A stretch of DNA of 64,000 bases from contig NZ_JASGBH010000011.1 of the NCBI RefSeq assembly GCF_030053395.1, forward strand, positions 1 to 64,000, read 5' to 3'. Source of the stretch: Limnohabitans lacus. Its GTDB lineage: Bacteria > Pseudomonadota > Gammaproteobacteria > Burkholderiales > Burkholderiaceae_C. Below the pieces are notes generated by a model. That model saw only the letters and a list, made by a program, of their open reading frames with translations, was not told the DNA's origin and made no database searches. Numbering within the stretch: the stretch's first letter is position 1; each line of letters starts with the position of its first letter. Made by a program: the position numbers and the translations under genes. Shown piece by piece: positions 24,931 through 46,922 of the stretch.

Positions 24931-25026
24931 GGCTGAACCTTTGAAAAATGCGGATACTTTTGACAATTTACGCGTGTGTTCGGCGTGCCACTGTGCGTTG
25001 CATCAAGCACGGTCATGAAACAGTCA

Positions 25027-25052
25027 CATATTTCCATTACAGTCGAAATATG
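25027..25052. promoter_or_regulatory. ArsR operator candidate
   Basis: CATATTTC and GAAATATG form a perfect 8-bp inverted repeat separated by 10 bp, running into the arsR start codon. This is the expected size and place for an ArsR/SmtB-family site and would let ArsR repress itself and possibly the divergent arsA, whose start is 97 bp away. Confidence 0.65.
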
Positions 25053-28329: not shown

Positions 28330-29388
28330 ATGAAAAAAACTCTCCTGGCCTTGGCCGTTCTGGCCGCCACCACAGCACAAGCTCAAAGCTCCGTGACTTT
28401 GTACGGCATCGCTGACGTGGCCTACAACAAATCCGTCGTCACCAGCAGCGCCGGTGTCAAAACTGAGACCAACGATTTCATCACCAATGGCCTGTCTGCC
28501 AGCCGCGTAGGCTTCAAAGGCGACCGTGAAATCGCCCCCGGTTTGAAAGCCAATTTCGTGATGGAATTTGAGGTCGATCCCAGCACAGAAACACAAACCA
28601 TCAAAACACGCACAGGCACTGTGGGCTTGAGCGGTGGTCTGGGTGGCGCAACGTTTGGTCGCCGCAACACATTGATCAAAGACATCGAATACACCTTTGA
28701 CGTCAACATGGACCCCACCGCTGCAGGTTACTTGGGCAACTACGCCCGTGACTCCCGCCGCGATGACGTGGTGACCTACACCACACCCGTTTTCAACGGT
28801 TTCTCGGCGGATGTGCAAATTGGCTTGGGTTCCACCACCAAAGTAACCAATGCCGCTGGTGTTGTCGATGCCACCAACAACGGTAAAACGGGCGATTCGA
28901 CGGCTTTTGGCTTGAACTACAGCAACGGACCTCTGGCTGTGAAGTTCGGTACCGAAACCGTCAAGAACACCGTCAAAGACATCAAAGTGGCGGGCTACAC
29001 CGTGGCCAAAGCGACGGCTGTCGATGACTTCAAGAACGATGCTTTGGGCGCTTCCTACGACCTGGGCATGGCCAAGTTGTTCTTTGTGAACACCAAGTCC
29101 AAGCAAGGCACAGAAGCCACCAAAGTCACGTTTGACACCAACAACGTCGGTGTTCGCGTACCCGTGGGTGCTTTCACCTTCAACGCCAACATCAGCGAAG
29201 GCAAGGCCAAGCTGACCAACTCCGCCACCAAGGCCGACATGAGTGGTGTGCAGTTGAGCGTTTGGTACGCCCTGAACAAGGACACAACCCTGTATGGCAT
29301 CTATGGCAACGAGAAAATCAAGCACCCGACTTTGACCACATCGCCTGAGCAAAAGAGCATGTTGTTCGGTCTGCGCTACACCTTCTGA
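28330..29388 (+). CDS. Gram-negative general porin (OmpC-like, Porin_4)
   Basis: A 352-residue outer-membrane beta-barrel with a clear signal peptide (MKKTLLALAVLAATTAQAQ) and the betaproteobacterial porin opening SSVTLYGIADVAYN. Other porin marks are SRVGFKGDREIAPGLKANF and the C-terminal aromatic FGLRYTF. It forms a diffusion channel for small solutes. The frame is open from 27643 but only the ATG at 28330 starts a signal peptide. It is monocistronic, ending in a strong terminator. Proximity to phosphate genes could suggest an anion porin but nothing in the sequence proves it. Confidence 0.93.
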   Translation: MKKTLLALAVLAATTAQAQSSVTLYGIADVAYNKSVVTSSAGVKTETNDFITNGLSASRVGFKGDREIAPGLKANFVMEFEVDPSTETQTIKTRTGTVGLSGGLGGATFGRRNTLIKDIEYTFDVNMDPTAAGYLGNYARDSRRDDVVTYTTPVFNGFSADVQIGLGSTTKVTNAAGVVDATNNGKTGDSTAFGLNYSNGPLAVKFGTETVKNTVKDIKVAGYTVAKATAVDDFKNDALGASYDLGMAKLFFVNTKSKQGTEATKVTFDTNNVGVRVPVGAFTFNANISEGKAKLTNSATKADMSGVQLSVWYALNKDTTLYGIYGNEKIKHPTLTTSPEQKSMLFGLRYTF

Positions 29389-29409
29389 TCGAACAGATCT
29401 CCAAGGTGG

Positions 29410-29440
29410 AAAGGGCCCGTTGCAAGCGGGCCCTTTTTCA
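29410..29440 (+). terminator. Rho-independent terminator of porin gene
   Basis: AAAGGGCCCG (29410-29419) pairs perfectly with CGGGCCCTTT (29427-29436) around a 7-base loop, followed by further Ts. It lies 21 bp after the porin stop. Confidence 0.9.
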
Positions 29441-29507
29441 TGGCGGGCTTGTCCTCTTGCTTGCCTGTCCTGAAAACCCAGTCTTTGATGCATGCGCGCC
29501 GATCAAG

Positions 29508-29525
29508 ACGTCACGAAACTTTCAT
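29508..29525 (+). promoter_or_regulatory. Candidate Pho box before olsB-plcP-agt
   Basis: ACGTCACGAAACTTTCAT matches 13 of 18 positions of the PhoB consensus CTGTCATAWAWCTGTCAY, with the two TCA-type half-sites 11 bp apart. It is 66 bp before the first gene of the lipid operon. Confidence 0.5.
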
Positions 29526-29591
29526 GCATCCGACTTTGGGTTGTCACGCACGCCTTGGATCATTGACGCACAGATCCAAAGGAGTGTTCTC

Positions 29592-30434
29592 ATGAAAGAG
29601 TTGCCCAACCCCACCTTCGCACTGTCCCCCTTGAATTTGCCCAGGGGGTCACTTCATCCGGCGCAGTCGAACGCCGCTGTGGATTTCATGCCTCGCCGCG
29701 CCCAAAGCGCTATTGAGGTCAGTTGGGCAAAGCATCAAGACGAAGTCCGCGAAGCACAGCGTCTGAGGTTTGACATTTTTGGCACCGAGATGGGTGCCCG
29801 TTTGTCCACCAAGGTGCCCGGCCATGACATCGATTTGTTCGATGACTATTGCGAGCATTTGTTGGTGCGCGAAACCGAAACCGGTCAGGTGATTGGCACC
29901 TACCGCGTGTTGACGCCCGAGCAAGCCAAGCGCGCAGGCAGTACCTACAGCGATACCGAATTTGACCTGACCCGTCTGCGTGACATGCGCAGCCGCATGG
30001 TGGAGCTGGGCCGCAGCTGTGTGCATGCGGATCACCGCCAAGGCGGCGTGATCATGGCCCTGTGGGGTGCCTTGTTTGAATTCATGGAGCGCAATCGCCT
30101 GGATGTGATGATTGGCTGCGCCAGCATCCCGATGCTGCACAACGGCATCGTCACCGGCAACGCGGCGGCCAGCATTTGGCACCAATTGCGCGAGACCCAC
30201 TTGGCGCCTATTCAGCACCATGTTCGCCCCCGTTTGCCACTGCCTGTGGACCAGCTGGAACACGATTTGTCGATTGCCCCCCCCGCGCTGATCAAAGGCT
30301 ATTTGCGCTTGGGGGCCAAAATTTTGGGTGCACCCGCCTGGGACCCCGACTTCAACACGGCCGATCTGCCCATGCTGATGCAAACCGCAGACATTCCTGC
30401 GCGTTACCGCCGCCACTTTGCAGGGAATGCCTGA
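29592..30434 (+). CDS. olsB: OlsB-like L-ornithine N-alpha-acyltransferase (hemolysin-like GNAT)
   Basis: A 280-residue acyltransferase of the Acetyltransf_5/OlsB group, with AQRLRFDIFGTEMGARL as the typical first motif, LLVRETETGQVIGTYRVL, and ELGRSCVHADHR. OlsB transfers a 3-hydroxy fatty acid from ACP to ornithine, the first step to the phosphorus-free ornithine lipid; OlsA, needed for the second acylation, is not in the window. AAAGGAG lies 7 bp before the ATG at 29592. The stop overlaps the plcP start (TGATG), so it is the first gene of a three-gene operon behind a candidate Pho box. Another N-acyl amino acid synthase activity remains possible. Confidence 0.8.
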   Translation: MKELPNPTFALSPLNLPRGSLHPAQSNAAVDFMPRRAQSAIEVSWAKHQDEVREAQRLRFDIFGTEMGARLSTKVPGHDIDLFDDYCEHLLVRETETGQVIGTYRVLTPEQAKRAGSTYSDTEFDLTRLRDMRSRMVELGRSCVHADHRQGGVIMALWGALFEFMERNRLDVMIGCASIPMLHNGIVTGNAAASIWHQLRETHLAPIQHHVRPRLPLPVDQLEHDLSIAPPALIKGYLRLGAKILGAPAWDPDFNTADLPMLMQTADIPARYRRHFAGNA

Positions 30435-31330
30435 TGCGTGTGCCCACCGCAGACCTGCAAACGACCATGTTGTTTGAGGCGTCACCGATCAAGGCACGCT
30501 CGACGGGGGATGCCCCTCAATCCATGGACGATGACGAGACGCCCGCAGGCCGAACCCGCTTGCGGGCGATTTTCATTTCGGACCTGCACATCGGCACACC
30601 GGGCTTCCAGGCCGATGCCTTGCTGGACTTCTTGAAGCACCACCCCAGCGACACCTTGTACCTGGTGGGGGACATCGTCGATGGCTGGCAGTTGCGCCGC
30701 CGTTGGTTTTGGCCGCAAAGTCACAACGATGTGGTGCAAAAGTTGCTCCGCCGTGCGCGCAAAGGCTGCCGCGTGATTTATGTGCCGGGCAACCACGACG
30801 AGTTCGCGCGCCACTTTGCGGGCCATGCCTTTGGCGGTATCGAGGTGGTTCACGACACGGTTCACACCACGGCCACGGGCCAAAATTTGTGGGTCATCCA
30901 CGGCGACCATTTCGATGGCGTGATCCAGTGTGCCAAATGGCTCGCCTATGTGGGTGACTGCTTGTACGAGTTGACGCTCAAGCTCAACCGCCACCTGAAC
31001 ACCGGGCGCGCTCGCATGGGCTTGGGTTACTGGTCTTTGTCGGCTTACCTCAAATTGAAGGTGAAAAAAGCCGTCAACTTCATCAGCGACTTTGAAGTCG
31101 CGGTGGCGCAAGAGGCCAAGCGCCGTGGTTTCGACGGCGCGGTGTGTGGGCACATCCACCACGCCGAGATTCGCGACATCAACGGCATCTTGTATTGCAA
31201 CGATGGCGATTGGGTCGAGAGCCGCAGCGCCTTGGTCGAGCACATGGATGGCCGTTTGGAGATCATCCATTGGGGCGAAGGCGCGGTCATGACGGTGCGC
31301 GAGATGAACGCTGTGGAGGCTTTGGTATGA
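30434..31330 (+). CDS. plcP: PlcP-like phospholipase C, calcineurin-type metallophosphoesterase
   Basis: The 298-residue metallophosphoesterase has all metal ligands in order: FISDLHIG, LVGDIVDGW, YVPGNHDEF, IHGDHFD and CGHIHHAEI. It would usually be labelled LpxH-like, but WFWPQSHNDVVQKLLRRARK and the long insert before the last His motif match my memory of the Sinorhizobium PlcP family, which cuts phospholipids to diacylglycerol during phosphate starvation. Coupling to an Agt-type glycosyltransferase downstream (ATGA) is the signature arrangement for that pathway. The first 40 residues precede the catalytic fold and are unconserved-looking. True LpxH (lipid A synthesis) is the alternative, less favoured because of the neighbours. 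Confidence 0.82.
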   Translation: MRVPTADLQTTMLFEASPIKARSTGDAPQSMDDDETPAGRTRLRAIFISDLHIGTPGFQADALLDFLKHHPSDTLYLVGDIVDGWQLRRRWFWPQSHNDVVQKLLRRARKGCRVIYVPGNHDEFARHFAGHAFGGIEVVHDTVHTTATGQNLWVIHGDHFDGVIQCAKWLAYVGDCLYELTLKLNRHLNTGRARMGLGYWSLSAYLKLKVKKAVNFISDFEVAVAQEAKRRGFDGAVCGHIHHAEIRDINGILYCNDGDWVESRSALVEHMDGRLEIIHWGEGAVMTVREMNAVEALV

Positions 31331-32415
31331 AACTGGCACTGATCACCGATGCCTGGCATCCGCAAGTCAATGGCGTGGTCACCACGCTGCACGAGCTGGT
31401 GGCCGCTTTGGCTCCACTGGGTGTGCAGGTCGAGGTGATCCACCCCGGTCTTTTTGAAAACAAACCCTGCCCAGGCTACAAAGGCATTGATTTGGCGGTG
31501 CGCCCGGCCAAGCGTTTGACCGAGATGCTCGATGCCATGCAGCCCGATGCCATCCACTTGGCCACCGAAGGCCCGTTGGGCTGGGCGGGTCGCCGCTATG
31601 GCCTCAAGCGCCGCTTGGCATTCACCACAGCGTTTCACACCAAGTTCCCTGAAATCTTGCATGCCGCTTTGCGTGTGCCCCTGTCGTGGGGCTATGCCTT
31701 GTTCCGTCACTTTCACCGTCCTTCGTCGGGGGTGATGGTGCCCACCCAGGGCGTGCTGGACATGCTCAAAGGCCGAGGCTTTGAAAATCTCAAGCCTTGG
31801 ACGCATGGCGTGGACCTGGGCTTGTTCGCGTACCACGACAAACCGCTGGACTTGCCTGCACTGGCGCATTTGCCCAGACCTTTGTCTTTGTTCGTGGGCC
31901 GTGTGTCTTACGAAAAAAACATCGAAGCCTTCTTGTCCATGAAGCTGCCGGGCACCCGTATCGTGTGCGGGGTGGGACCTTTGGAAGACAGTTTGCGCCA
32001 GCGCTTTCCCAGTGTGGTCTGGATGGGCGTTTTGCCTCGCCATGAATTGGCGCAGATATATGCCGCCAGTGATGTGTTTGTGTTCCCTTCGAAAAACGAG
32101 ACCTTTGGCTTGGTCATGCTTGAAGCCATGGCTTGCGGCACGCCTGTGGCTGCCTACCCCGTCGATGGCCCCTTGCAGGTCTTGGGGGCAGACACAGTCG
32201 GCGTGATGGGGGGTGTTTTGCACGAAGACCTTCAGCAAGCCGTGACCCAAGCCCTGCGCATTCCGCGAGCCCAGGCGCGGCGACGGGCCATGCACTTTGA
32301 CTGGCCTCAGACGGCGCAAAGCTTTGCTTCTCATCTGGTGGATGTGCGCCAGCGTACCGAGTGTGACGCGAACGCTTCACATAATGGTCATCAAATTGAC
32401 TTGAATGGTTCTTAG
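31327..32415 (+). CDS. agt: GT4 glycosyltransferase, Agt-like (diacylglycerol glycosyltransferase)
   Basis: The 362-residue GT-B fold enzyme begins KLALITDAWHPQVNGVVTTL and has the donor-binding segment SLFVGRVSYEKNIEAFL. The E-x7-E motif appears in SKNETFGLVMLEAMACGTPV. Together with PlcP, Agt-type enzymes convert the diacylglycerol released from phospholipids into glycolipids, replacing phospholipid in P-starved cells. The start overlaps the plcP stop. The sugar donor cannot be read. A mannosyltransferase of another pathway is the alternative. The end of the gene contains the candidate Pho box of ppk1. Confidence 0.82.
   Translation: MKLALITDAWHPQVNGVVTTLHELVAALAPLGVQVEVIHPGLFENKPCPGYKGIDLAVRPAKRLTEMLDAMQPDAIHLATEGPLGWAGRRYGLKRRLAFTTAFHTKFPEILHAALRVPLSWGYALFRHFHRPSSGVMVPTQGVLDMLKGRGFENLKPWTHGVDLGLFAYHDKPLDLPALAHLPRPLSLFVGRVSYEKNIEAFLSMKLPGTRIVCGVGPLEDSLRQRFPSVVWMGVLPRHELAQIYAASDVFVFPSKNETFGLVMLEAMACGTPVAAYPVDGPLQVLGADTVGVMGGVLHEDLQQAVTQALRIPRAQARRRAMHFDWPQTAQSFASHLVDVRQRTECDANASHNGHQIDLNGS
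32374..32391 (+). promoter_or_regulatory. Candidate Pho box before ppk1
   Basis: GCTTCACATAATGGTCAT fits 12 of 18 positions of the PhoB consensus, with TTCA and GTCA half-sites 11 bp apart. It overlaps the 3' end of the glycosyltransferase gene, 58 bp before ppk1, giving ppk1 a possible own promoter. Confidence 0.45.
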
Positions 32416-32448
32416 GATCAGAACGCAACGAGACGAAAACCAAAAACC

Positions 32449-34533
32449 ATGAGTTCTGAATCCTCCAAAAGTCACAGTGACAAAGCGCCATCGCACCTGT
32501 TGGACCGCGACTTGAGCATTCTGGCTTTCAATGAGCGGGTGCTCGATTGGGCGCACCGCCCAGATGTGCCCTTGCTGGAGCGCTTGCGCTATTTGTGCAT
32601 CGTCTCGTCCAACCTCGACGAATTTTTCGAGGTCCGCGCCGAGCCCCACGTGATGGGCGCTTTGCAAGGCCTGCGCACCGGGCCCTACACACAAGACAGT
32701 TGGTCGGCCATCACCGAGCAGGCCAACGCCATGGTGGCTCGTCAGTACACGCTGTACAACGACGATTTGTTGCCCGCTTTGGAGCGCCAAGGCTTTCGCA
32801 TCCTCTCGCACGGCGAACGCAACGCCGAGCAGCGCCGCTGGGTGCGCAGTTATTTCCAGCGCGAAGTCCAGCCCTTGCTGGTGCCGGTGGGGCTCGATCC
32901 CGCACACCCTTTTCCGCAGGTGGCCAACAAGTCTTTGAACTTCATTGTTCAGCTCTCAGGCAAAGACGCCTTTGGCCGCTCCAATGAAATCGCCATCGTC
33001 AAAGTGCCACGCGTTTTGCCGCGCTTGATCCCGCTGCCGGCCAAACTGTGTGGCGGCGCGACCTCGTTCGTGCTGCTGTCGAGCGTGATCCGTGCGCATC
33101 TGGCCGAATTGTTCCCGGGGCGTGGGGTGGGGCAGTTCTCCCAGTTCCGTGTGACGCGCCATTCCGACTTGGCGGTGGACGAGGACGACGTGGGCAACCT
33201 GCGCACCGCTTTGCGCCAGGGCCTGCAACACCGCAACTACGGCCAAGCCGTTCGCCTGGAGGTGTCTTCGGACTGCTCCTTGCGCTTGGCCGAGTATTTG
33301 CGCAAAGAATTTCAACTGCCCGAGTTGTCGGTGTTCCGTGTCAACGGGCCGGTGAACTTGGTGCGACTGATGCAGCTGATCGATCTGGCGCAAGCCCCTC
33401 ATTTGCTGTTTCCGCCTTACAAGGCCAGCTATCCGCAGCAATTGCCTGCGCACGGCTCGATCCTGTCGCGCTTGCGCGAAGGTGATGTGCTGATCCATCA
33501 ACCCTTTGAAAGCTTTGACGGCGTGCTGGCCTTTTTGCGCGAAGCGGTGTCCGACCCGAACGTGCTGGCCATCAAGCAAACCATCTACCGCACCGGCAGC
33601 GATCCGGCCATGATCGATCTGCTGCGCGAGGCGGTGCGTCAGGGCAAAGAGGTCACGGCGGTGGTCGAGCTCAAGGCCCGGTTTGACGAAGAGGCCAACA
33701 TCAACTGGGCCGAGCAACTTGAATCGATCGGTGCGCAGGTGGTGTATGGCGTGGTGGGGCTCAAAACCCACGCCAAAATGCTGTTGGTCACGCGCCGCGA
33801 AGGCCGCAGCTTGCGCCGGTATGGTCACTTGTCCACGGGCAACTACAACCCTCGCACGGCCAGGCTTTACACCGACATCAGCTACCTGACGGCCGACCCC
33901 GCCATCACCCTGGACATGGACCAGTTGTTTGGTCACTTGGCCAGTCAAAGCAGTTTGCCCAAGATGAAGCGTTTGCTGGTGGCACCGTTCACGCTGCACA
34001 CCGACATGCTCTCGCGCATCCGCGCCGCAGGCACAGCAGCGGCTGCAGGTCGGGGCGGTCGCATTGTTTTGAAGATGAATTCGCTGACCGATGTGCCCAT
34101 GGTGGAAGCCCTGATGGCCGCAGGTCAGCAAGGTGCCCAGATCGACTTGGTCATCCGCGGGGCCTGCATATTGCCCGCCGGTGTGCCCGGCGTGAGCGAA
34201 AACATCCGGGTGCGCTCGGTCATTGGCCGCTTTTTGGAGCATTCGCGCGTGTTTTATTTCCGGGCCGGTGAGACCGAGTCTTTGTACCTGTCGAGTGCCG
34301 ACTGGATGAGCCGCAACATGATGCGCCGTGTCGAGTTGGCTTGGCCCGTGGACGACCCGGCGCTGCGCCAGCGCATCATCGATGAATGCTTGCTGGCCTA
34401 TTTACACGACAGCAAAGACGCTTGGGACTTGGCCCCCGATGGTCGTTATCACCGCGTAGGACTGCATGCAAAGGGTCACGGCGCACAAAACGCTTTGATG
34501 GCGCGTTACACCGCCGCACCTTCGCAGGCGTGA
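32449..34533 (+). CDS. ppk1: Polyphosphate kinase 1
   Basis: The 694-residue PPK1 makes long-chain polyphosphate from ATP. It has the N-terminal RDLSILAFNERVLDWA, SNLDEFFEVRA, the autophosphorylated His441 in GLKTHAKMLLV, and a second conserved His598 in FLEHSRVFYF; YGHLSTGNYNP is also typical. Length is normal for the family. It follows the lipid operon after 33 bp and is followed 2 bp later by a SixA-type phosphatase gene. A possible Pho box upstream suggests induction by phosphate starvation. Confidence 0.96.
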   Translation: MSSESSKSHSDKAPSHLLDRDLSILAFNERVLDWAHRPDVPLLERLRYLCIVSSNLDEFFEVRAEPHVMGALQGLRTGPYTQDSWSAITEQANAMVARQYTLYNDDLLPALERQGFRILSHGERNAEQRRWVRSYFQREVQPLLVPVGLDPAHPFPQVANKSLNFIVQLSGKDAFGRSNEIAIVKVPRVLPRLIPLPAKLCGGATSFVLLSSVIRAHLAELFPGRGVGQFSQFRVTRHSDLAVDEDDVGNLRTALRQGLQHRNYGQAVRLEVSSDCSLRLAEYLRKEFQLPELSVFRVNGPVNLVRLMQLIDLAQAPHLLFPPYKASYPQQLPAHGSILSRLREGDVLIHQPFESFDGVLAFLREAVSDPNVLAIKQTIYRTGSDPAMIDLLREAVRQGKEVTAVVELKARFDEEANINWAEQLESIGAQVVYGVVGLKTHAKMLLVTRREGRSLRRYGHLSTGNYNPRTARLYTDISYLTADPAITLDMDQLFGHLASQSSLPKMKRLLVAPFTLHTDMLSRIRAAGTAAAAGRGGRIVLKMNSLTDVPMVEALMAAGQQGAQIDLVIRGACILPAGVPGVSENIRVRSVIGRFLEHSRVFYFRAGETESLYLSSADWMSRNMMRRVELAWPVDDPALRQRIIDECLLAYLHDSKDAWDLAPDGRYHRVGLHAKGHGAQNALMARYTAAPSQA

Positions 34534-34535
34534 GC

Positions 34536-34997
34536 ATGGACTTGATCTTGTGGCGACATGCGGAAGCCCACGATGCCGAACCGGGGCAAGACGATTTGCG
34601 AAGGGTCTTGACCCCCCGAGGTGAAAAACACGCCACGCGCATGGCGGTGTGGCTGGACCGCCAATTGCCCGAAGGCGTGCGCATTTTGACCAGCCCCGCG
34701 CTTCGGGCCGAGCAAACCGTGAAAGCCTTGGGCCGCAAATACAAAGTGCGCGATGCATTGTCACCCGGTGCGTCGGTGGACGACCTGCTGGAAGCGGCCG
34801 GTTGGCCCGACGCCAAGTGTCCCGTGGTCTTGGTGGGCCACCAGCCCACCTTGGGCGAGTTGGCGGCCAAGCTGCTCAAGATGGGGGAGGGCACTTGCCC
34901 CATCCGCAAAGGCGCTGTCTGGTGGTTGCGCAGCCGCCAGCGCGAGGACAGCGAGCAAACGGTGATCGTGTCGGTCACCACGCCTGAGCGGCTTTAG
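34536..34997 (+). CDS. sixA: SixA-type histidine phosphatase
   Basis: A 153-residue histidine-phosphatase-superfamily protein with the RHG-type motif LWRHAEAHDAE at the N-terminus and VVLVGHQPTLGELA carrying the second catalytic His. SixA removes phosphate from phospho-His proteins such as PTS or ArcB-type components; beside ppk1 it could also act on another phospho-compound. The ATG at 34536 follows the ppk1 stop by 2 bp; a longer frame overlapping ppk1 is not used. Confidence 0.88.
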   Translation: MDLILWRHAEAHDAEPGQDDLRRVLTPRGEKHATRMAVWLDRQLPEGVRILTSPALRAEQTVKALGRKYKVRDALSPGASVDDLLEAAGWPDAKCPVVLVGHQPTLGELAAKLLKMGEGTCPIRKGAVWWLRSRQREDSEQTVIVSVTTPERL

Positions 34998-35007
34998 TGC
35001 CCTCAAT

Positions 35008-35043
35008 GCCCTAAAGGCCCTAAAGGCCTTAAAGGCCTTAAAG
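35008..35043. repeat. Four tandem 9-bp repeats
   Basis: GCCCTAAAG, GCCCTAAAG, GCCTTAAAG, GCCTTAAAG follow one another exactly, between convergent sixA and the basic-protein gene. The third and fourth copies create AAGGCCTT palindromes. It might be a slippage-prone minisatellite or part of a terminator. Confidence 0.85.
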
Positions 35044-35047
35044 CGTT

Positions 35048-35648: not shown

Positions 35649-37145
35649 TCAATTGAATTGAACTTTGAGTTCCCAGCCGGTTTTGAACCAGGCAATGGTT
35701 TCTTCGCGCAAGAGGTGTGCGGACTGCGGCCATTGCTCTGCCCAGGCCGTGCTCAGCTTGAGTTTGGCCACCTTGCGCGAGGTATCCACGTTCAACTCAA
35801 AAGCGCTGGTGTCCGGGTCCCGGCGGGCATGGCACAAGATGACCGCCATGCGCAAGGCCATCAGCTGCTGGACAAACAAGGGGTCTTGCAGGGGTTCGTC
35901 GAGTTTGCGCAACTTACCCCGGTGGCCCAGCACCAGCTGGCTCAGTCGGTGCAATTCGTCGATGGTGAAGCCCGGCAAGTCGGTGTTGTCCAAGATGTAG
36001 GCGCCGTGCTTGTGGTAATCACTGTGCGAGATGCGCATGCCCACTTCGTGCAGTTGCGCTGCCCAATGCAATTTGCGCAAATGCCTGGGGGCTTCTTCGT
36101 CGGCGGCTTTGCCCAGCATGGCCGACAGCAAGGTCTGCGCGGTGCGCGAGACGCGTTCGGCTTGCGTCAGGTCCGAGCCAAAACGGTGTGTGAGCCAGGA
36201 CACCATCTGGGTGCGCACATCGTCGTGGGGGCTTTCACGGTCCAGCAGGTCGTACAAAGCGCCATGGCGCAAGGCGCCTTGGGCGGCATGCATTTCATCG
36301 ATCTGCAGCAAATCGAAAACCGCCCGCAACACCGCCAGGCCACCGCCGATGACGGGACGGCGGTCTTCCTTGACACCTTCGAGCTTGAGGTACTCGGGCT
36401 TTTGTGCTTTGAGTAATTTGTCTTTGAGCCAGTCCAGCCCACTGCGGGTGATCAGGCCTTCGGGCCAGCCGGCCAAGGTGAGCACATCGGCCACCGCGCC
36501 CACCGTGCCCGATGAGCCATAGCAGGTGTCCCAGTTTTGACGCGGATATTGAATTTGGGCTTCGTCCAGCACCGCTTTGGCGGCAATTTCCGCGGCTTTG
36601 AAGGCCGAATGGGTCCAAACACCATCGGGGAAATATTTCATGGACCAGGCCACGCTGCCCACACGGTAAGACTCCAGGGTTTTGGCCTGGGCGTTTTTGC
36701 CCAAAATCAATTCGGTCGAACGCCCACCGATGTCCACCACCAAGCGACGCTCGGGCGATTGGGGCAAAAGGTGCGATACCCCCATGTAAATCAGGCGGGC
36801 TTCTTCACGGCCGGCGATGACCTCGATCGGGTAGCCCAAGATGCTTTTGGCTTTGGCCAAAAAGACCTCGCGATTGCGCGCTTCGCGCAGCGTCTGGGTG
36901 GCCACTGCGCGCACTTGACTGGGCTTGAAGCCTGCGATCCGTTCGGCAAACCGTGCCAGGCAGTCCCAGCCGCGTTGCATGGCTTCGTCGCTCAGGTTGC
37001 GCTCGGCATCCAGGCCATTGCCTTGGCGCACGGTTTCCTTGATGTACTCCATGCGCCGCAGATGCCCCGCCTCGAGTTGACCGATTTCCAGGCGAAAGCT
37101 GTTGGAGCCAAGGTCAATGGCGGCGAAAAGGGACTTGGTGAGCAT
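35649..37145 (-). CDS. ppx: Exopolyphosphatase Ppx/GppA
   Basis: The 498-residue protein has an actin-like ATPase fold at the N-terminus (AAIDLGSNSFRLEIG, VVDIGGRSTELILG, and SSGTVGAVAD) and a C-terminal HD-type helical domain (HWAAQLHEVGMRISHSDYHK). It hydrolyses polyphosphate from the end, opposing the PPK1 encoded 1.1 kb away; GppA activity on pppGpp is an alternative. Its transcription runs toward sixA, and CHAD and PPK2 genes lie upstream on the same strand. Confidence 0.94.
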   Translation of the reverse strand: MLTKSLFAAIDLGSNSFRLEIGQLEAGHLRRMEYIKETVRQGNGLDAERNLSDEAMQRGWDCLARFAERIAGFKPSQVRAVATQTLREARNREVFLAKAKSILGYPIEVIAGREEARLIYMGVSHLLPQSPERRLVVDIGGRSTELILGKNAQAKTLESYRVGSVAWSMKYFPDGVWTHSAFKAAEIAAKAVLDEAQIQYPRQNWDTCYGSSGTVGAVADVLTLAGWPEGLITRSGLDWLKDKLLKAQKPEYLKLEGVKEDRRPVIGGGLAVLRAVFDLLQIDEMHAAQGALRHGALYDLLDRESPHDDVRTQMVSWLTHRFGSDLTQAERVSRTAQTLLSAMLGKAADEEAPRHLRKLHWAAQLHEVGMRISHSDYHKHGAYILDNTDLPGFTIDELHRLSQLVLGHRGKLRKLDEPLQDPLFVQQLMALRMAVILCHARRDPDTSAFELNVDTSRKVAKLKLSTAWAEQWPQSAHLLREETIAWFKTGWELKVQFN

Positions 37146-40385: not shown

Positions 40386-41402
40386 ATGTTGAAAATGAAA
40401 TCCGTGATCGCCGCCGTCGGCCTGAGCGTTTTGGCCGCCACCAGCTGGGCCGCCGACATCACTGGCGCTGGCGCCACCTTCCCCTATCCCATGTATGCCA
40501 AGTGGGCTGAAGCCTACAAAGCAGCCACTGGCGTGGGCCTGAACTACCAGTCCATCGGTTCTTCGGGTGGTTTGAAGCAAATCCGCGCCAAGACCGTGAC
40601 TTTTGGCGCCTCTGACGCCCCAGTCTCGGGTGCTGACTTGGACAAAGACGGCATGGTGCAATTTCCAGCCATCATCGGCGGCACCGTCCCCGTGGTGAAC
40701 CTGGAAGGTTTCAAGCCCGGTGAGTTGCGCATCAGCGGCCCCGTGTTGGCTGAGGTTTACATGGGCACCATCACCAAGTGGAACGATGCCAAACTGGCCG
40801 CTTTGAACCCCGGCAAAAAATTGCCTGACCAAGCCATCACCGTGGTGCACCGCGCTGACGGCTCTGGCACCACCTTCAACTTCACCGACTACCTGAGTGC
40901 CGTCAGCAAAGACTGGGCCGACAAAGTGGGCAAGGGCGCAGCGGTCAAGTGGCCTGCGAACTCCTCCGTCGGTGGCAAAGGTAACGAAGGCGTGGCCGCC
41001 AACGTGAACCGCGTCAAAGGCGCTGTGGGTTACGTCGAATACGCCTACGTCAAGAAAAACAACATGAACTTCTTGCAGTTGCTCAACGCTTCTGGCAAGT
41101 ACGTCAGCCCCGATGACCTGACCTTTGCCGCAGCCGCTGCTGGCGCCGATTGGTTCAGCGTGCCCGGCATGGGTGTGTCCATGGTCAACGCCAAGGGCAA
41201 TGACAGCTGGCCCATCAGCACTGCATCGTTCATCTTGATGTACAAAAAGCCGGCCGACAAAGCTTCTTCGGACGAAGTCTTGAAGTTCTTTGACTGGGCT
41301 TTCAAGAACGGCAAGAAAATGGCGGCAGATCTGGACTATGTCCCACTGCCAGATGCTTTGACCGCACAGATCCGCACCAAAGTCTGGTCCGAGATCAAGT
41401 GA
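40386..41402 (+). CDS. pstS: Phosphate ABC transporter substrate-binding protein PstS
   Basis: A 338-residue periplasmic protein with a signal peptide (ending SWAA) and DITGAGATFPYPMYAKWAEA, YQSIGSSGGLKQI, FGASDAPVS and HRADGSGTTFNFTDYLS, the residues that bind phosphate. It feeds PstCAB. A Pho box upstream and a hairpin just downstream fit high, PhoB-dependent expression of pstS relative to the membrane genes. Confidence 0.96.
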   Translation: MLKMKSVIAAVGLSVLAATSWAADITGAGATFPYPMYAKWAEAYKAATGVGLNYQSIGSSGGLKQIRAKTVTFGASDAPVSGADLDKDGMVQFPAIIGGTVPVVNLEGFKPGELRISGPVLAEVYMGTITKWNDAKLAALNPGKKLPDQAITVVHRADGSGTTFNFTDYLSAVSKDWADKVGKGAAVKWPANSSVGGKGNEGVAANVNRVKGAVGYVEYAYVKKNNMNFLQLLNASGKYVSPDDLTFAAAAAGADWFSVPGMGVSMVNAKGNDSWPISTASFILMYKKPADKASSDEVLKFFDWAFKNGKKMAADLDYVPLPDALTAQIRTKVWSEIK

Positions 41403-41432
41403 TGGTTTGAGCGAAGTCATCGAGGACTTCCT

Positions 41433-41466
41433 GGCCTCTCATCCGCAAGGGTGAGGGGTCTTTTTT
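41433..41466 (+). terminator. Attenuating terminator between pstS and pstC
   Basis: GGCCTCTCATCC (41433-41444) pairs with GGGTGAGGGGTC (41449-41460) through a GCAA tetraloop with a few G-U pairs, followed by six Ts. It is placed inside the pst operon, so part of transcription probably stops after pstS. Confidence 0.8.
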
Positions 41467-41481
41467 AAAGATTGCAAGGAT

Positions 41482-42492
41482 ATGCAGTTGTCACAAGGAA
41501 TGAATATGGGATCGATCGATCAGCCCAGCCAAGCGCCCGATCAAAACATGCTGGCGGTCGTCAAACGCCAACGTATTCAGGACTTCTTTTTTCACAAGGT
41601 CACCCTGAGCTTTTCGCTCTTGGTCTTGTTTGCCCTCTTGGGCATCATCATTTCCTTGCTGATCAATGCTTGGCCCTCATTGGCCAAGTTTGGTTTTCAG
41701 TTCATTTGGCGTGTCGAGTGGGACATCGTCAACGAAGAATTTGGTGCGGCCATTGCCATTTTTGGCACCTTGGTCAGCGCCCTGATTGCACTCTTGATCG
41801 CCGTGCCATTGTCTTTTGGCATTGCCCTGTTTTTGACCGAGACCTGCCCCACCGCCTTGCGCCGCCCCTTGGGCACGGCCATTGAATTGTTGGCGGCGGT
41901 GCCCTCCATCATTTACGGCATGTTCGGCCTGTTCATCTTCGCGCCCTTGTTTGCAGAATATGGTCAGCCCGCTTTGCAGTCGACCTTGGGCCAGATGCCC
42001 CTCATTGGCAGCTTGTTTGGTGGCGCCATGAATGGTGTGGGCATTTTGGCTGCAGGCATTGTGCTGGCCTTCATGATCGTGCCCTTCATTGCCGCGGTCA
42101 TGCGCGATGTGTTCGAGATCGTGCCCCCCATCTTGCGCGAGTCGGCCTATGGCCTGGGGTGCACCACCTGGGAGGTGGTCCGCAGCATCGTCTTGCCCTA
42201 CACACAAAAGGGCGTGATTGGCGGCGTCATGTTGGGCCTGGGGCGTGCGCTGGGTGAGACCATGGCGGTCACTTTTGTCATTGGCAACTCGCAGCGTTTG
42301 AGTGCCTCGCTGTTTTCGCCCGGCACCACCATCGCTTCGACTTTGGCCAACGAGTTTGGCGAAGCGGCCGACTTTCACTTGTCCACCTTGTTTGCATTGG
42401 GCTTCTTGCTGTTCGTGATCACTTTCATCGTCTTGAGCCTGGCCAAGATCATGTTGATCCGCGCAGAAAATGCCAAGGGCTCCAAAACTTGA
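41482..42492 (+). CDS. pstC: Phosphate ABC transporter permease PstC
   Basis: A 336-residue inner-membrane permease with six hydrophobic segments, the [12 protein letters not shown] segment and the ABC-coupling loop [20 protein letters not shown]. It pairs with PstA to form the phosphate channel. ATGs at 41482 and 41500 or 41506 are possible; the N-terminal tail is hydrophilic, so the choice is soft. It is followed by pstA after 22 bp. Confidence 0.95.
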
Positions 42493-42514
42493 TGCCCCGC
42501 ACCGGAGAAATACG

Positions 42515-43363
42515 ATGGATTTGAAAATTTACAAACGCAGACAGTTGGCCAACCGCATTGGCTTGACCTTGTCCATGTCGGCGATGGGCTTGGGTCTGTT
42601 CGTCTTGCTGTGGATCTTGTTCGTGCTGCTGTCCAACGGCTTGGCCGCCCTTGACTGGGCGATGTTCACCCAATCGACCCCAGCCCCTGGTTCTGAAGGC
42701 GGTGGCTTAGCCAATGCCATTGTGGGCAGCTTGATGATGGTTTTGGTGACGGCTTTTGTGAGCACGCCCATCGGCATTTTTGCGGGCGTGTACCTGGCCG
42801 AATACGGTGATCAAAGCAAAACGGCCGAACTGACCCGCTTTGTCACCGACATCATGCTGTCGGCGCCTTCCATCGTGCTGGGTTTGTTTGTGTATGCGGT
42901 GCTGGTGGCGCAGGTGCAGCACTTCTCGGGTTGGGCAGGTTCTTTGGCGCTGTCTTTGATCGCGGTGCCTGTGGTTGTGCGCACCACCGAAAACATGCTG
43001 CGCTTGGTGCCTGGCAGCTTGCGCGAAGCGGCTTTTGCCTTGGGCGCGCCCCGCTGGAAAGTGGCCACCTTCATCACCTTGCGTGCGGCCAAATCGGGCG
43101 TGATGACCGGCTTGCTGCTGGCGCTGGCCCGCATCAGCGGGGAGACAGCGCCCTTGCTGTTCACCGCTCTGAACAACCAGTTCTTCTCGACCAACATGAA
43201 CGCCCCCATGGCGAACTTGCCGGTGGTGATCTTCCAGTTCGCCATGAGCCCTTACGACAACTGGGTGCGACTGGCTTGGGGTGGAGCCCTCTTGATCACC
43301 TTGACCGTGCTGATCCTGAACATCTTGGCGCGCGTGTTTTTCCGCGAAAAAGCCCAAGGCTAA
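42515..43363 (+). CDS. pstA: Phosphate ABC transporter permease PstA
   Basis: A 282-residue permease with six hydrophobic segments, [29 protein letters not shown] and the EAA-like loop [20 protein letters not shown]. The ATG at 42515 has CCGGAG just upstream; a frame open from 42470 overlaps pstC and is unlikely. It acts with PstC and PstB. Confidence 0.95.
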
Positions 43364-43376
43364 ATTTTTTGAATGG

Positions 43377-44168
43377 ATGGAATTTCCAATGCCTACAACG
43401 CAAAACCTGCCATTGAAAAACGCGATCGAAATTCGCAACCTGAATTTCTTTTACGGCACTTTTAAAGGTCTGAAGAACGTCAACCTCGACATCGCCGAAA
43501 ACAAGGTCACCGCCTTCATTGGCCCATCGGGCTGCGGCAAGTCCACACTGCTGCGCACGCTCAACCGCATGTACAGCCTGTATCCCGGGCAGCGCGCTGA
43601 GGGCGAGATCAACTTTTATGGCCAGAACATCCTGGACAGCAAGCAAGACCTGAACTTGCTGCGCGCCCGTGTGGGCATGGTTTTCCAAAAGCCCACGCCT
43701 TTCCCGATGTCGATTTACGACAACATCGCATTTGGCATCCGCTTGTACGAGAACCTGAGCCGCTCCGAGATGGACGAGCGCGTGGAATGGGCCCTGAGCA
43801 AAGCGGCGATCTGGAACGAAGTCAAAGACAAACTGGGCCAAAGCGGCCTGTCATTGTCCGGTGGTCAGCAGCAGCGTTTGTGCATCGCACGCACGGTGGC
43901 GGTCAAGCCCAAAGTCATTTTGCTGGACGAGCCCACTTCGGCACTCGATCCGATTTCGACCGCCAAAGTCGAAGAATTGGTGACCGAGTTGAAGAAAGAC
44001 CACACCGTGGCCATCGTCACCCACAACATGCAGCAAGCTGCGCGTGTGTCGGACTTCACGGCCTACATGTACCTGGGCGAGTTGGTCGAGTTTGGTCAAA
44101 CCGAGCAGATCTTCATGAAGCCCGCCCGCCAGGAAACCGAAGACTACATCACAGGCCGTTTCGGCTGA
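43377..44168 (+). CDS. pstB: Phosphate ABC transporter ATP-binding protein PstB
   Basis: A 263-residue ATPase with Walker [11 protein letters not shown], the Q-loop [15 protein letters not shown] typical of PstB, the signature [14 protein letters not shown] and Walker [13 protein letters not shown]. It drives phosphate import. A second ATG at 43389 is possible. It lies 13 bp after pstA and is followed by phoU after 13 bp. Confidence 0.97.
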
Positions 44169-44181
44169 TCAGGAGCACACC

Positions 44182-44880
44182 ATGGACAAACACATTTCAA
44201 GCCAATTCGATGCCGACCTGACCAACGTGTCTTCACGCGTTTTGGAGCTGGGCGGTTTGGTCGAGTCGCAAACCCGCCATGCGGTCTATGCCCTGGCCCA
44301 ATTCAGTGCCGAAGTCGCTGACCAGGTGATTGCTGCTGAAAAGCAAGTCAACACCATGGAAGTCGAGATCGATGCTGAGCTGGCATCGATCATCGCCCGC
44401 CGCCAGCCCACGGCCCGCGATTTGCGATTGCTGATGGCGATCTCCAAGATCACCGGCAACCTCGAACGCGTGGGCGACGAGGCCGATCGCATTGCCCGCA
44501 TGGTCAAACAAATCCTGCAACAGGGCAGCCCCCGCAATTTGCCATCGTCTGAATTGCGCATCGCTTCTGACCTGGCCTCGGGTTTGCTGCGCAAGTCTTT
44601 GGACGCCTTTGCCCGTCTGGATGTGAACACCGCCTTGGTGATTTTGAAAGAAGACGATTTGATCGATGCCGAGTTCAACGGGTTCGTGCGCAAATTGGTC
44701 ACCTACATGATGGAAGACCCCCGCACGATTTCGGCCAGCTTGGACTTGCTCTTCGTGGCCAAAGCCATTGAGCGCATTGGTGACCACGCCAAGAACATCG
44801 CCGAATTTGTGATCTATGTGGTCAAGGGGGCCGATGTGCGCCACACCGCTTTGTCTGACATTGAGCAAGCCGTCAAATGA
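44182..44880 (+). CDS. phoU: Phosphate signalling regulator PhoU
   Basis: A 232-residue all-helical protein with the two PhoU repeats: QVNTMEVEIDAELASIIARR (first) and LFVAKAIERIGDHAKNIAEF (second), each with the E/DxxxD metal-binding pattern. It links Pst transport to the PhoR kinase so that the regulon is off when phosphate is plentiful. Its stop overlaps phoB by 4 bp, so signalling parts are translated together. Confidence 0.96.
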   Translation: MDKHISSQFDADLTNVSSRVLELGGLVESQTRHAVYALAQFSAEVADQVIAAEKQVNTMEVEIDAELASIIARRQPTARDLRLLMAISKITGNLERVGDEADRIARMVKQILQQGSPRNLPSSELRIASDLASGLLRKSLDAFARLDVNTALVILKEDDLIDAEFNGFVRKLVTYMMEDPRTISASLDLLFVAKAIERIGDHAKNIAEFVIYVVKGADVRHTALSDIEQAVK

Positions 44881-45572
44881 GAAGCCTGCCTCGGATTCTG
44901 ATTGTCGAAGACGAGTCGGCTATCGCCGAACTCATCTCGGTCAACCTGCGCCACAACGGGTTTCAGCCCGTGTGGGCGATGGATGCCGAGTCTGCGCAAC
45001 GTGAACTCGATGAAATCTTGCCCGATGTGATCTTGCTGGACTGGATGCTGCCCGGTGAAAGCGGTTTGGCGCTGGCACGGCGCTGGCGCTCTGCTGCGCG
45101 GACCAAGGCTGTGCCCATCTTGATGCTGACGGCTCGAGGCGATGAAGCCGACCGCGTGGCGGGTCTCGATGCCGGCGCCGACGATTACATCGTCAAACCG
45201 TTTTCGCCCCGTGAGTTGTTGGCCCGCATCCGTGCGGTCTTGCGCCGTCGTGTGCCGGAGTCTGCGGGCGGTTTGGTGAAAATTGCCGAGCTGCAACTCG
45301 ATGCCGACACCTACCGCGTCAGCTGGCAAGACAAGCCTTTGAAGGTGGGCCCCACCGAGTTCAAGCTTTTGCAGTATTTGATGCGTCACCCTGAGCGCGT
45401 GCACACACGCGGCATGTTGCTGGACAAAATTTGGGGTGACCATGTCTACATCGAAGAGCGCACGGTGGATGTCCATGTCAAGCGCCTGCGCGAGTCCTTG
45501 GGCGAAGCGGGCACCATGATCGAGACGGTACGCGGTGCCGGCTACCGTTTGACCGGATCGCCTGCGCCCTGA
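44877..45572 (+). CDS. phoB: Phosphate regulon response regulator PhoB
   Basis: A 231-residue OmpR-type regulator. The receiver has ILIVEDE and phospho-acceptor Asp55 in LLDWMLPGESG; the C-terminal winged helix has GPTEFKLLQYLMRHPERVHT and ERTVDVHVKRLRESL. It binds Pho boxes, of which three candidates occur in this window. The start is fixed by ATGA overlap with phoU. Confidence 0.96.
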   Translation: MRSLPRILIVEDESAIAELISVNLRHNGFQPVWAMDAESAQRELDEILPDVILLDWMLPGESGLALARRWRSAARTKAVPILMLTARGDEADRVAGLDAGADDYIVKPFSPRELLARIRAVLRRRVPESAGGLVKIAELQLDADTYRVSWQDKPLKVGPTEFKLLQYLMRHPERVHTRGMLLDKIWGDHVYIEERTVDVHVKRLRESLGEAGTMIETVRGAGYRLTGSPAP

Positions 45573-45587
45573 CGGACAATCGACGGC

Positions 45588-46922
45588 ATGTTTTCTTCGA
45601 TTTTCGTGTTCCTTTTCTCGACCGCCTCGATGGCGCTGTTGGGTTGGTGGTTGGCAGGACCGATGCTGGCTCTTGCATTGGCCTTGGCTTGCGCCCTGTG
45701 GGCCGCATTGGCCATGCTCTGGAAAATCCACCGTCTGGAGCGCTGGATCTCGGGTTCAGACCTGATGCGCGATGTGCCCTGGAAGGGTGTGTGGCTGGAG
45801 ACCGCCCAGCGCATGCAACGGTTGCTCAAACAGCGTGACAAGCTGGCCAAGGACCATGAAAAACGCCTGAACGATTTTTTGTCGGCGATCCAGGCTTCAC
45901 CCAATGGTGTGACCTTGCTCGATGAGCAAGGCCGCATCGAATGGTTCAACGACACCGCAGCCACGCACTTGGGTTTGGACATTGTCCGAGACCGCATGCA
46001 GCATGTGGTGCACTTGGTGCGTGATCCTGTTTTTTCACGTTATTTTGCGCAAGCAGAACACCACAGCGATGTGGTCATCGATGGCCGGTCTTTGACGGTG
46101 GCACAAAACACCAAGCTGTCGGTGCAGTTGCATTCGTATGACGAGGGCCGTCAATTGCTGCTGACCCGCGACATCACTTTGATGACCATGGCCGATGCCA
46201 TGCGCCGTGATTTCGTGGCCAACGTCTCTCACGAAATCAGAACCCCATTGACAGTGCTCAGTGGCTTTGTGGAAACTTTGCAGATGATCCCGCTGGCGGA
46301 GTCAGAGCGCAAGGAATACCTGGACTTGATGGCCGTGCAAGCCGGCCGCATGCAAAGTCTGGTGGCCGACTTGTTGACCCTGTCGCAGTTGGAAGGCAGC
46401 CTCCCGCCGGGCACGTCCGAAAAAGTGTCCGTCAAAGACCTGATGGCGCAGGTGGCCTCTGATGCGGCGGCACTGTCAGCGGTGCTGGGCGACAAAGACC
46501 CCGAGCAAAGGCATGTGGTGCACGACATCGTGTTTGAGCCGGCACCCGAATGGGCCATCTTGGGGGGGCGCTCAGAGTTGCACAGTGCAATCTCCAACTT
46601 GGTCAGCAATGCCATTCGCTACACACCTGCGGGCGGGCGGGTCCATGTGTCGTGGTCGCGCGACCCAGAACATGTGATCTTGTCGGTGAAAGACTCGGGG
46701 CCAGGCATTGCGCCCGAACACTTGCCCCGCTTGTCCGAGCGCTTTTACCGCGTCGATCGCAGCCGTTCCCGCGAGACCGGTGGCACGGGACTGGGCTTGG
46801 CCATCACCAAACACGTGGCGCAACGCCATGGGGGCGAGCTGCGCGTCGAAAGTCAACTGGGCAAAGGCTCCAACTTCATGTTGGTGTTGCCCATCAGCCG
46901 CGTGGAGCCCCTCTCGGATTGA
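45588..46922 (+). CDS. phoR: Phosphate regulon sensor histidine kinase PhoR
   Basis: A 444-residue kinase with two N-terminal hydrophobic segments and almost no periplasmic loop, a PAS-like region (FLSAIQASPNGVTLLDEQGR), His215 in the H-box ANVSHEIRTPLTVL and the ATP-binding N, D and G boxes (NLVSNAIRYTPAGG, SVKDSGPGIAPEHL, GGTGLGLAITKH). It phosphorylates PhoB when Pst/PhoU signal low phosphate. It ends the pst-pho operon. The 236 bp that follow show no gene and no strong terminator. Confidence 0.95.
   Translation: MFSSIFVFLFSTASMALLGWWLAGPMLALALALACALWAALAMLWKIHRLERWISGSDLMRDVPWKGVWLETAQRMQRLLKQRDKLAKDHEKRLNDFLSAIQASPNGVTLLDEQGRIEWFNDTAATHLGLDIVRDRMQHVVHLVRDPVFSRYFAQAEHHSDVVIDGRSLTVAQNTKLSVQLHSYDEGRQLLLTRDITLMTMADAMRRDFVANVSHEIRTPLTVLSGFVETLQMIPLAESERKEYLDLMAVQAGRMQSLVADLLTLSQLEGSLPPGTSEKVSVKDLMAQVASDAAALSAVLGDKDPEQRHVVHDIVFEPAPEWAILGGRSELHSAISNLVSNAIRYTPAGGRVHVSWSRDPEHVILSVKDSGPGIAPEHLPRLSERFYRVDRSRSRETGGTGLGLAITKHVAQRHGGELRVESQLGKGSNFMLVLPISRVEPLSD

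What the first reader, a model, noticed from the sequence alone, without database searches (positions are those of the whole stretch)
29508..32415. olsB-plcP-agt operon: phosphorus-free membrane lipid remodelling beside the Pho regulon
Seen: three overlapping genes encode an OlsB-type acyltransferase, a PlcP-like metallophosphoesterase and a GT4 glycosyltransferase, behind a Pho-box-like site. Known: in alphaproteobacteria PlcP and Agt swap phospholipids for glycolipids when phosphate is scarce, and OlsB starts ornithine-lipid synthesis. Inference: this freshwater-type betaproteobacterium joins both branches in one PhoB-controlled operon next to polyphosphate and pst genes. I do not know of this exact combination being described.
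Basis: partly seen in the sequence, partly recalled or inferred. Interest (0 to 1): 0.85.

Follow-up and report, generated by a model that had tools for sequence, protein, structure and literature searches.

The report
Phosphate-saving membrane lipid operon
A freshwater bacterium carries, behind one predicted phosphate-starvation switch, three genes that look able to replace phosphate-containing membrane lipids with two phosphate-free kinds; each enzyme is of a known type, but I found no description of both lipid routes in one gene unit next to phosphate storage genes.

Summary
olsB (29592-30434), plcP (30434-31330) and agt (31327-32415) overlap by 1 and 4 bases behind a Pho-box-like site at 29508. 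The nearest named genomes are Limnohabitans. The esterase is a PlcP, not LpxH: 52.5% identical to a Sinorhizobium meliloti homologue, on the PlcP side of a 100/100 branch, with lpxH elsewhere in the genome. A candidate olsA also lies elsewhere. PhoB control is backed by comparison: Pho-like sites scoring 12 or more precede olsB in 47 of 80 named relatives and ppk1 in 58 of 62, but the inner genes plcP in 1 of 61 and agt in 2 of 40. In a family sample, plcP behind olsB has such a site in 0 of 50, plcP without olsB upstream in 4 of 27. The layout is not special to this genome: of 77 family genomes I sampled among the better PlcP matches, 50 have olsB directly before plcP and 31 have olsB-plcP-agt-ppk1. 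No nucleotide-sugar dehydrogenase was found, so the predicted glycolipid is a hexosyl-diacylglycerol, not glucuronosyl. PlcP-Agt, OlsBA and their PhoB control are known; the joint operon beside ppk1 did not turn up in my searches. No lipid or expression data exist here.

The parts
29410..29436 (+). likely intrinsic terminator of the upstream porin gene, which would separate it from the operon
   Evidence: 10-bp stem 29410-29419/29427-29436 with 7-base loop and T run, read by eye from the sequence; the consensus scan did not list it
29508..29547 (+). predicted PhoB binding region: site 29508-29525 and a further TGTCAC at 29542-29547, half-sites about 11 bases apart
   Evidence: score 14.9, rank 2 in the window; similar blocks in 16 of 17 relatives aligned, with substitutions
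29592..30434 (+). olsB: predicted ornithine:acyl-ACP N-acyltransferase (280 aa)
   Evidence: PF13444 118 bits; NCBIfam OlsB models 165 and 152 bits, below cut-offs 350 and 320; 29.4% to a S. meliloti OlsB homologue, E 9e-35
30434..31330 (+). plcP: predicted intracellular phospholipase C (298 aa)
   Evidence: 52.5% to a S. meliloti PlcP homologue; 53.2% to a P. aeruginosa homologue; PlcP side of a 100/100 branch and metal motifs
31327..32415 (+). agt: predicted GT4 diacylglycerol glycosyltransferase (362 aa)
   Evidence: PF00534/PF13439; 47.9% to the glycosyltransferase directly downstream of the P. aeruginosa plcP homologue
32374..32402 (+). predicted tandem Pho box of ppk1, inside the 3' end of agt
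   Evidence: scores 11.1 and 11.7 at 11-bp offset; 58 of 62 named relatives have a site of 12 or more upstream of ppk1
32449..34533 (+). ppk1, polyphosphate kinase 1, 33 bases behind agt
   Evidence: NF003918 1053 bits; same-strand neighbour in many relatives
34536..34997 (+). sixA-like histidine phosphatase, follows ppk1 (start uncertain)
   Evidence: PF00300 30.6 bits; recurrent order
35649..37145 (-). ppx, Ppx/GppA phosphatase, with Pho-like sites at 37179 and 37190 (minus strand)
   Evidence: scores 12.1 and 12.3; 32 of 47 named relatives have a site of 12 or more, 4 of 14 in the first family set
40386..46922 (+). pstS-pstC-pstA-pstB-phoU-phoB-phoR, the presumed sensor and regulator
   Evidence: NCBIfam matches

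Best explanation
This is a PhoB-controlled lipid-remodelling operon. At low phosphate PhoB binds upstream of olsB and drives olsB-plcP-agt (predicted). PlcP cuts membrane phospholipids to diacylglycerol and a phosphorylated head group (inferred from characterised homologues). Agt adds a sugar to that diacylglycerol; glucose is most likely, because the genome appears unable to make UDP-glucuronate and the homologue Agt1 of P. aeruginosa uses only UDP-glucose (inferred). In parallel OlsB acylates ornithine, and an unlinked OlsA behind pyrC adds the second acyl chain to give ornithine lipid (inferred). The next unit, ppk1-sixA, has its own predicted PhoB site and may also receive read-through, so remodelling and polyphosphate handling would switch together (promoters predicted, co-expression not shown).
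For: PlcP identity: tree of 34 proteins with a 100/100 branch between PlcP and LpxH, GNHD instead of LpxH's GNRD, and a separate lpxH. Agt: 47.9% to the P. aeruginosa PA3218-like enzyme; PMC8528852 (passages) reports glycolipid synthesis through PA3219, PA3218 and PA0842, with Agt1 (PA3218) taking UDP-glucose only. OlsB: OlsB models 165 and 152 bits against 20.4 for glycine-lipid GlsB. OlsA candidate: OlsA model 131 bits against 98.9 for the lysophosphatidate acyltransferase model; 94 bits to a S. meliloti OlsA homologue against 53 to E. coli PlsC; a second, PlsC-like gene is present. Regulation, named set: sites of 12 or more upstream of olsB 47/80, ppk1 58/62, ppx 32/47, against plcP 1/61, agt 2/40, sixA 0/60, random windows 28/480; twelve column-permuted matrices gave 0-7 of 80 for olsB and 0-7 of 62 for ppk1. 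plcP behind olsB 0/50, plcP without olsB upstream 4/27. Coupling: olsB and plcP within 10 kb in 16 of the 60 genomes with both among 140 drawn across the order, in ten families. Donor limit: no nucleotide-sugar dehydrogenase at 1e-10, same search positive in 13 of 14 controls. A betaproteobacterial precedent: P. xenovorans replaced PE with ornithine lipids at low phosphate (stated as data not shown in PMC7814305, passages).
Against: No expression, binding, enzyme or lipid data. OlsB and OlsA score below the curated NCBIfam cut-offs. 33 of 80 named loci have no olsB site of 12 or more, and the best site is on the minus strand in 17 of the 47 that do. With shuffles, 16 of 77 plcP upstream regions also reach p<=0.05, and single permuted matrices reach 7 of 61 for plcP and 12 of 40 for agt. 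A terminator-like stem with a T-rich tail lies at 30540-30568, inside the start of plcP (10 such sites in the region against 7.0 expected). agt is often absent beside plcP and plcP is sometimes absent, so the three-gene set is not obligatory. NCBIfam's best, far sub-cut-off match for Agt is a GlcN-phosphatidylglycerol synthase (86 of 480 bits), so the acceptor is not certain.
Confidence: 0.8

Rival explanations
1. OlsB acylates another amino acid or amine (for example glutamine, glycine or lysine), so the amino-lipid is not ornithine lipid.
For: Below the OlsB equivalog cut-offs and only 29% identical to the S. meliloti homologue; olsA is unlinked; related N-acyltransferases with other substrates exist (glutamine lipid, PMC6298996: title, start of abstract and one passage seen).
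Against: OlsB models score 152-165 bits, OlsF 38.7 and GlsB 20.4; Burkholderia s.l. with OlsB homologues make ornithine lipid (PMC7814305, passages); OlsA-like genes sit within about 3 kb of olsB in six loci from four other families of the order.
Confidence: 0.1
2. PlcP and Agt do not serve membrane replacement; the glycosyltransferase acts on phosphatidylglycerol or another acceptor and PlcP only recycles diacylglycerol.
For: Best NCBIfam match is GlcN-PG synthase (86 bits). Among 20 genomes lacking agt beside plcP, one has a 49% homologue elsewhere, five a 36-37% one and 14 none at 1e-40, so plcP often works without agt. In the S. meliloti record plcP has no glycosyltransferase beside it.
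Against: 48% identity to the enzyme downstream of the P. aeruginosa plcP homologue, and a glycosyltransferase directly behind plcP also in Sphingomonas, Roseomonas and P. aeruginosa records.
Confidence: 0.07
3. The esterase is a second LpxH (lipid A synthesis) and the neighbourhood is incidental.
For: Same superfamily; weak matches to LpxH models, 38.6 and 33.9 bits; database records name its homologues UDP-2,3-diacylglucosamine diphosphatase.
Against: 100/100 separation from LpxH and different metal-site motifs; another gene scores as lpxH (218 bits against cut-off 134).
Confidence: 0.02
4. The Pho boxes are chance AT-rich matches and the operon is constitutive.
For: The matrix was hand-set from the recalled consensus and the threshold of 12 chosen after the first scan; random windows reach 12 in 28 of 480 and 18 of 491.
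Against: Enrichment at first genes only, permuted-matrix control and the aligned upstream regions.
Confidence: 0.04

Closest known systems
PlcP-Agt glycolipid pathway (Phaeobacter and SAR11, P. aeruginosa PA3219-PA3218, Methylosinus trichosporium)
   Same: plcP followed by a GT4 agt (in SAR11, Erythrobacter, P. aeruginosa, Methylosinus), Pho box upstream in P. aeruginosa, homologous enzymes (PMC4796936, PMC8528852, PMC9239053: passages)
   Different: In the passages seen olsB is not reported in the same operon; here olsB is the first gene and the ppk1 unit follows; glucuronosyl-DAG is not expected here
OlsBA ornithine-lipid pathway (S. meliloti, Burkholderia s.l.)
   Same: OlsB homologue with an upstream Pho box, as predicted in 21 of 43 Burkholderia s.l. 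genomes, and in all 43 with a refined matrix (PMC7814305, passages)
   Different: olsA is not beside olsB; olsB is in one operon with plcP-agt
PhoBR-dependent co-expression of PlcP and OlsAB in Pseudomonas putida BIRD-1
   Same: Both branches raised at low phosphate and absent in the phoBR mutant (PMC5082522, passages)
   Different: There plcP and olsA/olsB have distant locus tags (1390 and 0974/0975); here one operon

Membership tests
PlcP (lipid-remodelling phospholipase C) | Groups with PlcP homologues and apart from LpxH | tested here: met
   100/100 branch; 34 rows: 9 PlcP, 20 LpxH, 5 ungrouped
PlcP (lipid-remodelling phospholipase C) | Di-metal phosphoesterase motifs DxH, GDxxD, GNHD, HGD, GHxH | tested here: met
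   motif table; motif names recalled
PlcP (lipid-remodelling phospholipase C) | Hydrolyses phospholipid to diacylglycerol | not testable with these tools
   needs enzyme assay or mutant lipidomics
LpxH | Score over the curated LpxH cut-off | tested here: not met
   38.6 against 134 and 33.9 against 190.35 bits
LpxH | GNRD metal motif and HGHTH | tested here: not met
   window has GNHD and CGHIH; the 20 LpxH rows have GNRD and HGHTH
OlsB | Score over the NCBIfam equivalog cut-off | tested here: not met
   165 against 350, 152 against 320; best family is still OlsB. The model names suggest that they were built on alphaproteobacterial members, so I call it OlsB-like rather than proven OlsB
OlsB | Genome also encodes an OlsA distinct from PlsC | tested here: met
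   candidate at C24 and PlsC-like gene at C4; the OlsA score is itself below its cut-off (131 of 300)
OlsB | Makes lyso-ornithine lipid | not testable with these tools
   needs assay
Agt-type DAG glycosyltransferase | GT4 family, close to a characterised Agt, next to plcP | tested here: met
   that the comparator is Agt1 is inferred from its place behind the plcP homologue
Agt-type DAG glycosyltransferase | DAG acceptor and UDP-sugar donor | not testable with these tools
   donor narrowed only by the missing nucleotide-sugar dehydrogenase
Pho regulon member | Pho box at the operon head, recurring in relatives | tested here: met
Pho regulon member | PhoB-dependent induction | not testable with these tools
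   needs expression data

The most novel reading that the evidence does not exclude
Burkholderiales keep a phosphorus-economy island in which two phosphate-free lipid routes and polyphosphate metabolism are wired to PhoB side by side, so that phosphate set free from membrane lipids can be passed into polyphosphate or ATP supply; this freshwater lineage does it with a hexosyl-DAG and ornithine lipid only, and many relatives have dropped agt and rely on ornithine lipid.
Probability: 0.35. Interest if true: 0.6.

Novelty: new variant of a known kind. Interest (0 to 1): 0.45.

Why it matters
Limnohabitans is an abundant freshwater group, and phosphorus limits many lakes (both recalled). If these cells swap phospholipids for glycolipids and ornithine lipids, their phosphorus demand changes, and perhaps their fate as prey, as reported for a marine bacterium (PMC9457565, title and start of abstract in the listing only). 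The natural variants, with and without agt in isolates of one genus, give a ready comparison.

Tried and rejected
LpxH2 reading: rejected by tree, motifs and a separate lpxH. Glucuronosyl-DAG as product: unlikely, no nucleotide-sugar dehydrogenase at 1e-10. Uniqueness to this genome: rejected. PDB sequence search gave nothing useful for PlcP (2 weak matches, E 0.27 and 0.51) and none for Agt at 1e-10. The sigma-70 scan found no promoter in 29380-35100. PHROGs gave only weak phosphoesterase matches. Structure prediction was not run, because homology was already clear. The query labelled 'porin' in the scripts was read in a wrong frame and no result of it was used. The S. meliloti sequences are homologues in strain Ak57 found by similarity or place; that they are the characterised PlcP, OlsB and OlsA is inferred from similarity and recalled gene context. 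That the P. aeruginosa plasmid pair corresponds to PA3219-PA3218 is likewise inferred (53%, order, and a cyclase gene beside it that I recall as PA3217).

Limits of counts: the 77 family loci (window not counted) were picked by me from the PlcP matches listed, which lists only the better part of 222 positive genomes; they hold one to four per genus. The 17 relatives were chosen by me among them. Some contigs end inside the locus, so absences are upper limits. Related genomes are not independent events.
Full report
Observation. The window lies on contig C3 of a 3.15-Mb genome. The nearest named relatives are Limnohabitans; the OlsB of Limnohabitans sp. Jir72 is 95% identical. Three genes follow each other on the plus strand: olsB 29592-30434, plcP 30434-31330 and agt 31327-32415, overlapping by 1 and 4 bases. 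ppk1 begins after 33 bases and a sixA-like gene follows. On the other strand come ppx, a CHAD-domain gene and a ppk2-type gene, and then pstSCAB-phoU-phoB-phoR on the plus strand. A stem-loop with a T run behind the upstream porin (29410-29436, read by eye, not listed by the scan) suggests that transcription of the operon starts after it.

Identity of the parts. PlcP: the protein is 52.5% identical to a S. meliloti homologue and only 24-25% over about 120 residues to E. coli LpxH and the genome's own LpxH. In a maximum-likelihood tree of 34 proteins, 9 PlcP rows and 20 LpxH rows lie on opposite sides of a 100/100 branch. The window protein has GNHD and CGHIH where the 20 LpxH rows have GNRD and HGHTH. 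plcP is single-copy and an lpxH lies on C21 (173.6 bits to TIGR01854, slightly below its cut-off of 190.35, but 218 bits to NF003743 against 134). Agt: a GT4 enzyme 47.9% identical to the glycosyltransferase directly downstream of the P. aeruginosa plcP homologue. In P. aeruginosa, Agt1 makes monoglucosyl-DAG and takes only UDP-glucose (PMC8528852, passages). OlsB: the best NCBIfam families are the two OlsB models, but at 165 and 152 bits they stay below the cut-offs of 350 and 320; 29.4% identity to the S. meliloti homologue. OlsA: of three PlsC-type acyltransferases in the genome, the one on C24 behind pyrC prefers OlsA over PlsC by model (131 against 98.9 bits) and by sequence (94 bits to the S. 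meliloti OlsA homologue, 53 to E. coli PlsC), while the one on C4 prefers PlsC. By longest reading frames 27 bases separate it from pyrC, so it probably has no Pho promoter of its own (inference).

Product. No member of the nucleotide-sugar dehydrogenase family was found in this genome at 1e-10, although the same search was positive in 13 of 14 control genomes. Glucuronosyl-DAG, one of the two products reported for Agt enzymes (PMC4796936, PMC8528852, passages), is therefore not expected; a hexosyl-DAG is.

Regulation. With a hand-set matrix for the recalled consensus, the site at 29508 scores second in the window. In the first family set (window included), 35 of 51 olsB upstream regions beat their shuffles at p<0.05 (34 of 51 at p<=0.05 with dinucleotide shuffles). 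Scores of 12 or more occur in 24 of 51 for olsB, 34 of 52 for ppk1, 4 of 14 for ppx, 4 of 77 for plcP, 2 of 47 for agt, 0 of 30 for sixA and 18 of 491 random windows; by shuffles 16 of 77 plcP regions also reach p<=0.05. In the 80 named loci the numbers are 47/80 olsB, 58/62 ppk1, 32/47 ppx, 1/61 plcP, 2/40 agt, 0/60 sixA, 28/480 random. Twelve column-permuted matrices gave 0-7 of 80 for olsB, 0-7 of 62 for ppk1 and 0-3 of 47 for ppx; for plcP they gave 0-7 of 61 and for agt 0-12 of 40, so the low counts of these two are at the level of noise. The box tends to go with the gene that heads the operon: plcP behind olsB has a site of 10 or more in 0 of 50, plcP without olsB upstream in 8 of 27 (4 of 27 at 12 or more). 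Aligned upstream regions of the window and 17 relatives show blocks GTCA, TTCA, ACTTT and TGTCA at about 11-base spacing. They vary: TTAA for TTCA in six rows, ACAT for ACTT and TGACA for TGTCA in five each, GACA for GTCA in one, and Curvibacter L131 does not align.

Distribution. PlcP is found in 222 of 299 family genomes. In 77 that I sampled, 31 have olsB-plcP-agt-ppk1, 7 olsB-plcP-agt, 8 olsB-plcP-ppk1, 4 olsB-plcP, and 27 lack olsB directly upstream. In one of these 27 olsB lies 3.6 kb upstream (L082); of the other 26, 24 have an OlsB match elsewhere. Of 20 genomes without PlcP, 11 have OlsB. In the 80 named loci, olsB and plcP are adjacent in 56 of the 74 with room, plcP and agt in 38 of 74, and ppk1 is on the same strand in 59 of 67 (in 2 of these it lies upstream of olsB). 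In 140 genomes drawn across the order, 71 have PlcP, 100 OlsB, 60 both, and in 16 of the 60 (window included) the two lie within 10 kb, in ten families. By my own rough arithmetic random placement would give about 0.3. Orders vary: olsB-plcP-agt in L240, plcP-agt-olsB in L244, plcP-agt then olsB beside a divergent olsA-like gene in L245 and L246, olsB-plcP-pstS in L242, and a cluster with agt, plcP, ppk1, ppx, olsA-like, olsB, sixA and pstS genes in L254. The link seems to have been kept or re-made several times. Where agt is missing beside plcP it is mostly missing from the genome: among 20 such genomes one has a 49% homologue, five a 36-37% one (a kind that agt-bearing G242 also has) and 14 none at 1e-40.

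Mechanism. Shown: gene families by homology, order, and Pho-like sites enriched at the heads of units. Inferred: PhoB binding, lipid products, coupling to polyphosphate.

Compared with what is known. PlcP-Agt remodelling and its Pho control are known in alpha- and gammaproteobacteria (PMC4796936, PMC8528852, PMC9239053, passages). A Pho box upstream of olsB is known in Burkholderia s.l., and P. xenovorans is said to shift to ornithine lipids at low phosphate (PMC7814305, passages). Joint PhoBR control of PlcP and OlsAB from separate loci is known in P. putida (PMC5082522, passages). I found no paper that reports olsB, plcP and agt in one operon or beside ppk1. The searches were made, in open-licence PMC papers only, and their listings were capped. 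Of the nine papers that hold both 'olsB' and 'plcP' I saw passages of five (PMC9239053, PMC9804370, PMC7779409, PMC6298996, PMC5082522). PMC7814305 says that the olsB context is conserved in Burkholderia s.l. but shows no data, so partial earlier knowledge is possible.

Verdict.

Noticed in passing
window 25010-25027 (+): The best Pho-like site in the window (score 17.5) lies by the divergent arsA-type gene (23176-24966, minus) and an HTH (ArsR-like) gene (24948-25376), ahead of MIP channel and arsH genes; arsenic genes may be tied to phosphate starvation.
   Followed up: partly
window 28330-29388: A general porin just upstream of olsB has Pho-like sites at 28197 (+) and 28145 (-); it could be a phosphate-starvation porin.
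   Followed up: no
window 37233-38048 (-): A CHAD-domain gene sits between ppx and a ppk2-type gene; CHAD is recalled as a polyphosphate-binding domain.
   Followed up: no
L116 (CALQKH020000017.1): A record titled Akkermansia muciniphila carries a Limnohabitans-like olsB (80%); the title or bin is probably wrong.
   Followed up: no
L095, L096 (CP090106.1): A S. meliloti record named plasmid pSymB carries hrcA, rpoN, mutS and other typically chromosomal genes; it looks like a mislabelled chromosome.
   Followed up: no
L232 (NZ_CP137508.1): A P. aeruginosa plasmid record holds a plcP-agt pair beside a cyclase gene, resembling what I recall of the chromosomal PA3219-PA3217 stretch.
   Followed up: no
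L043, L045, L048, L059: Four relatives without agt beside plcP have a different GT4-like match (30-31%) about 2-4 kb upstream of plcP.
   Followed up: no
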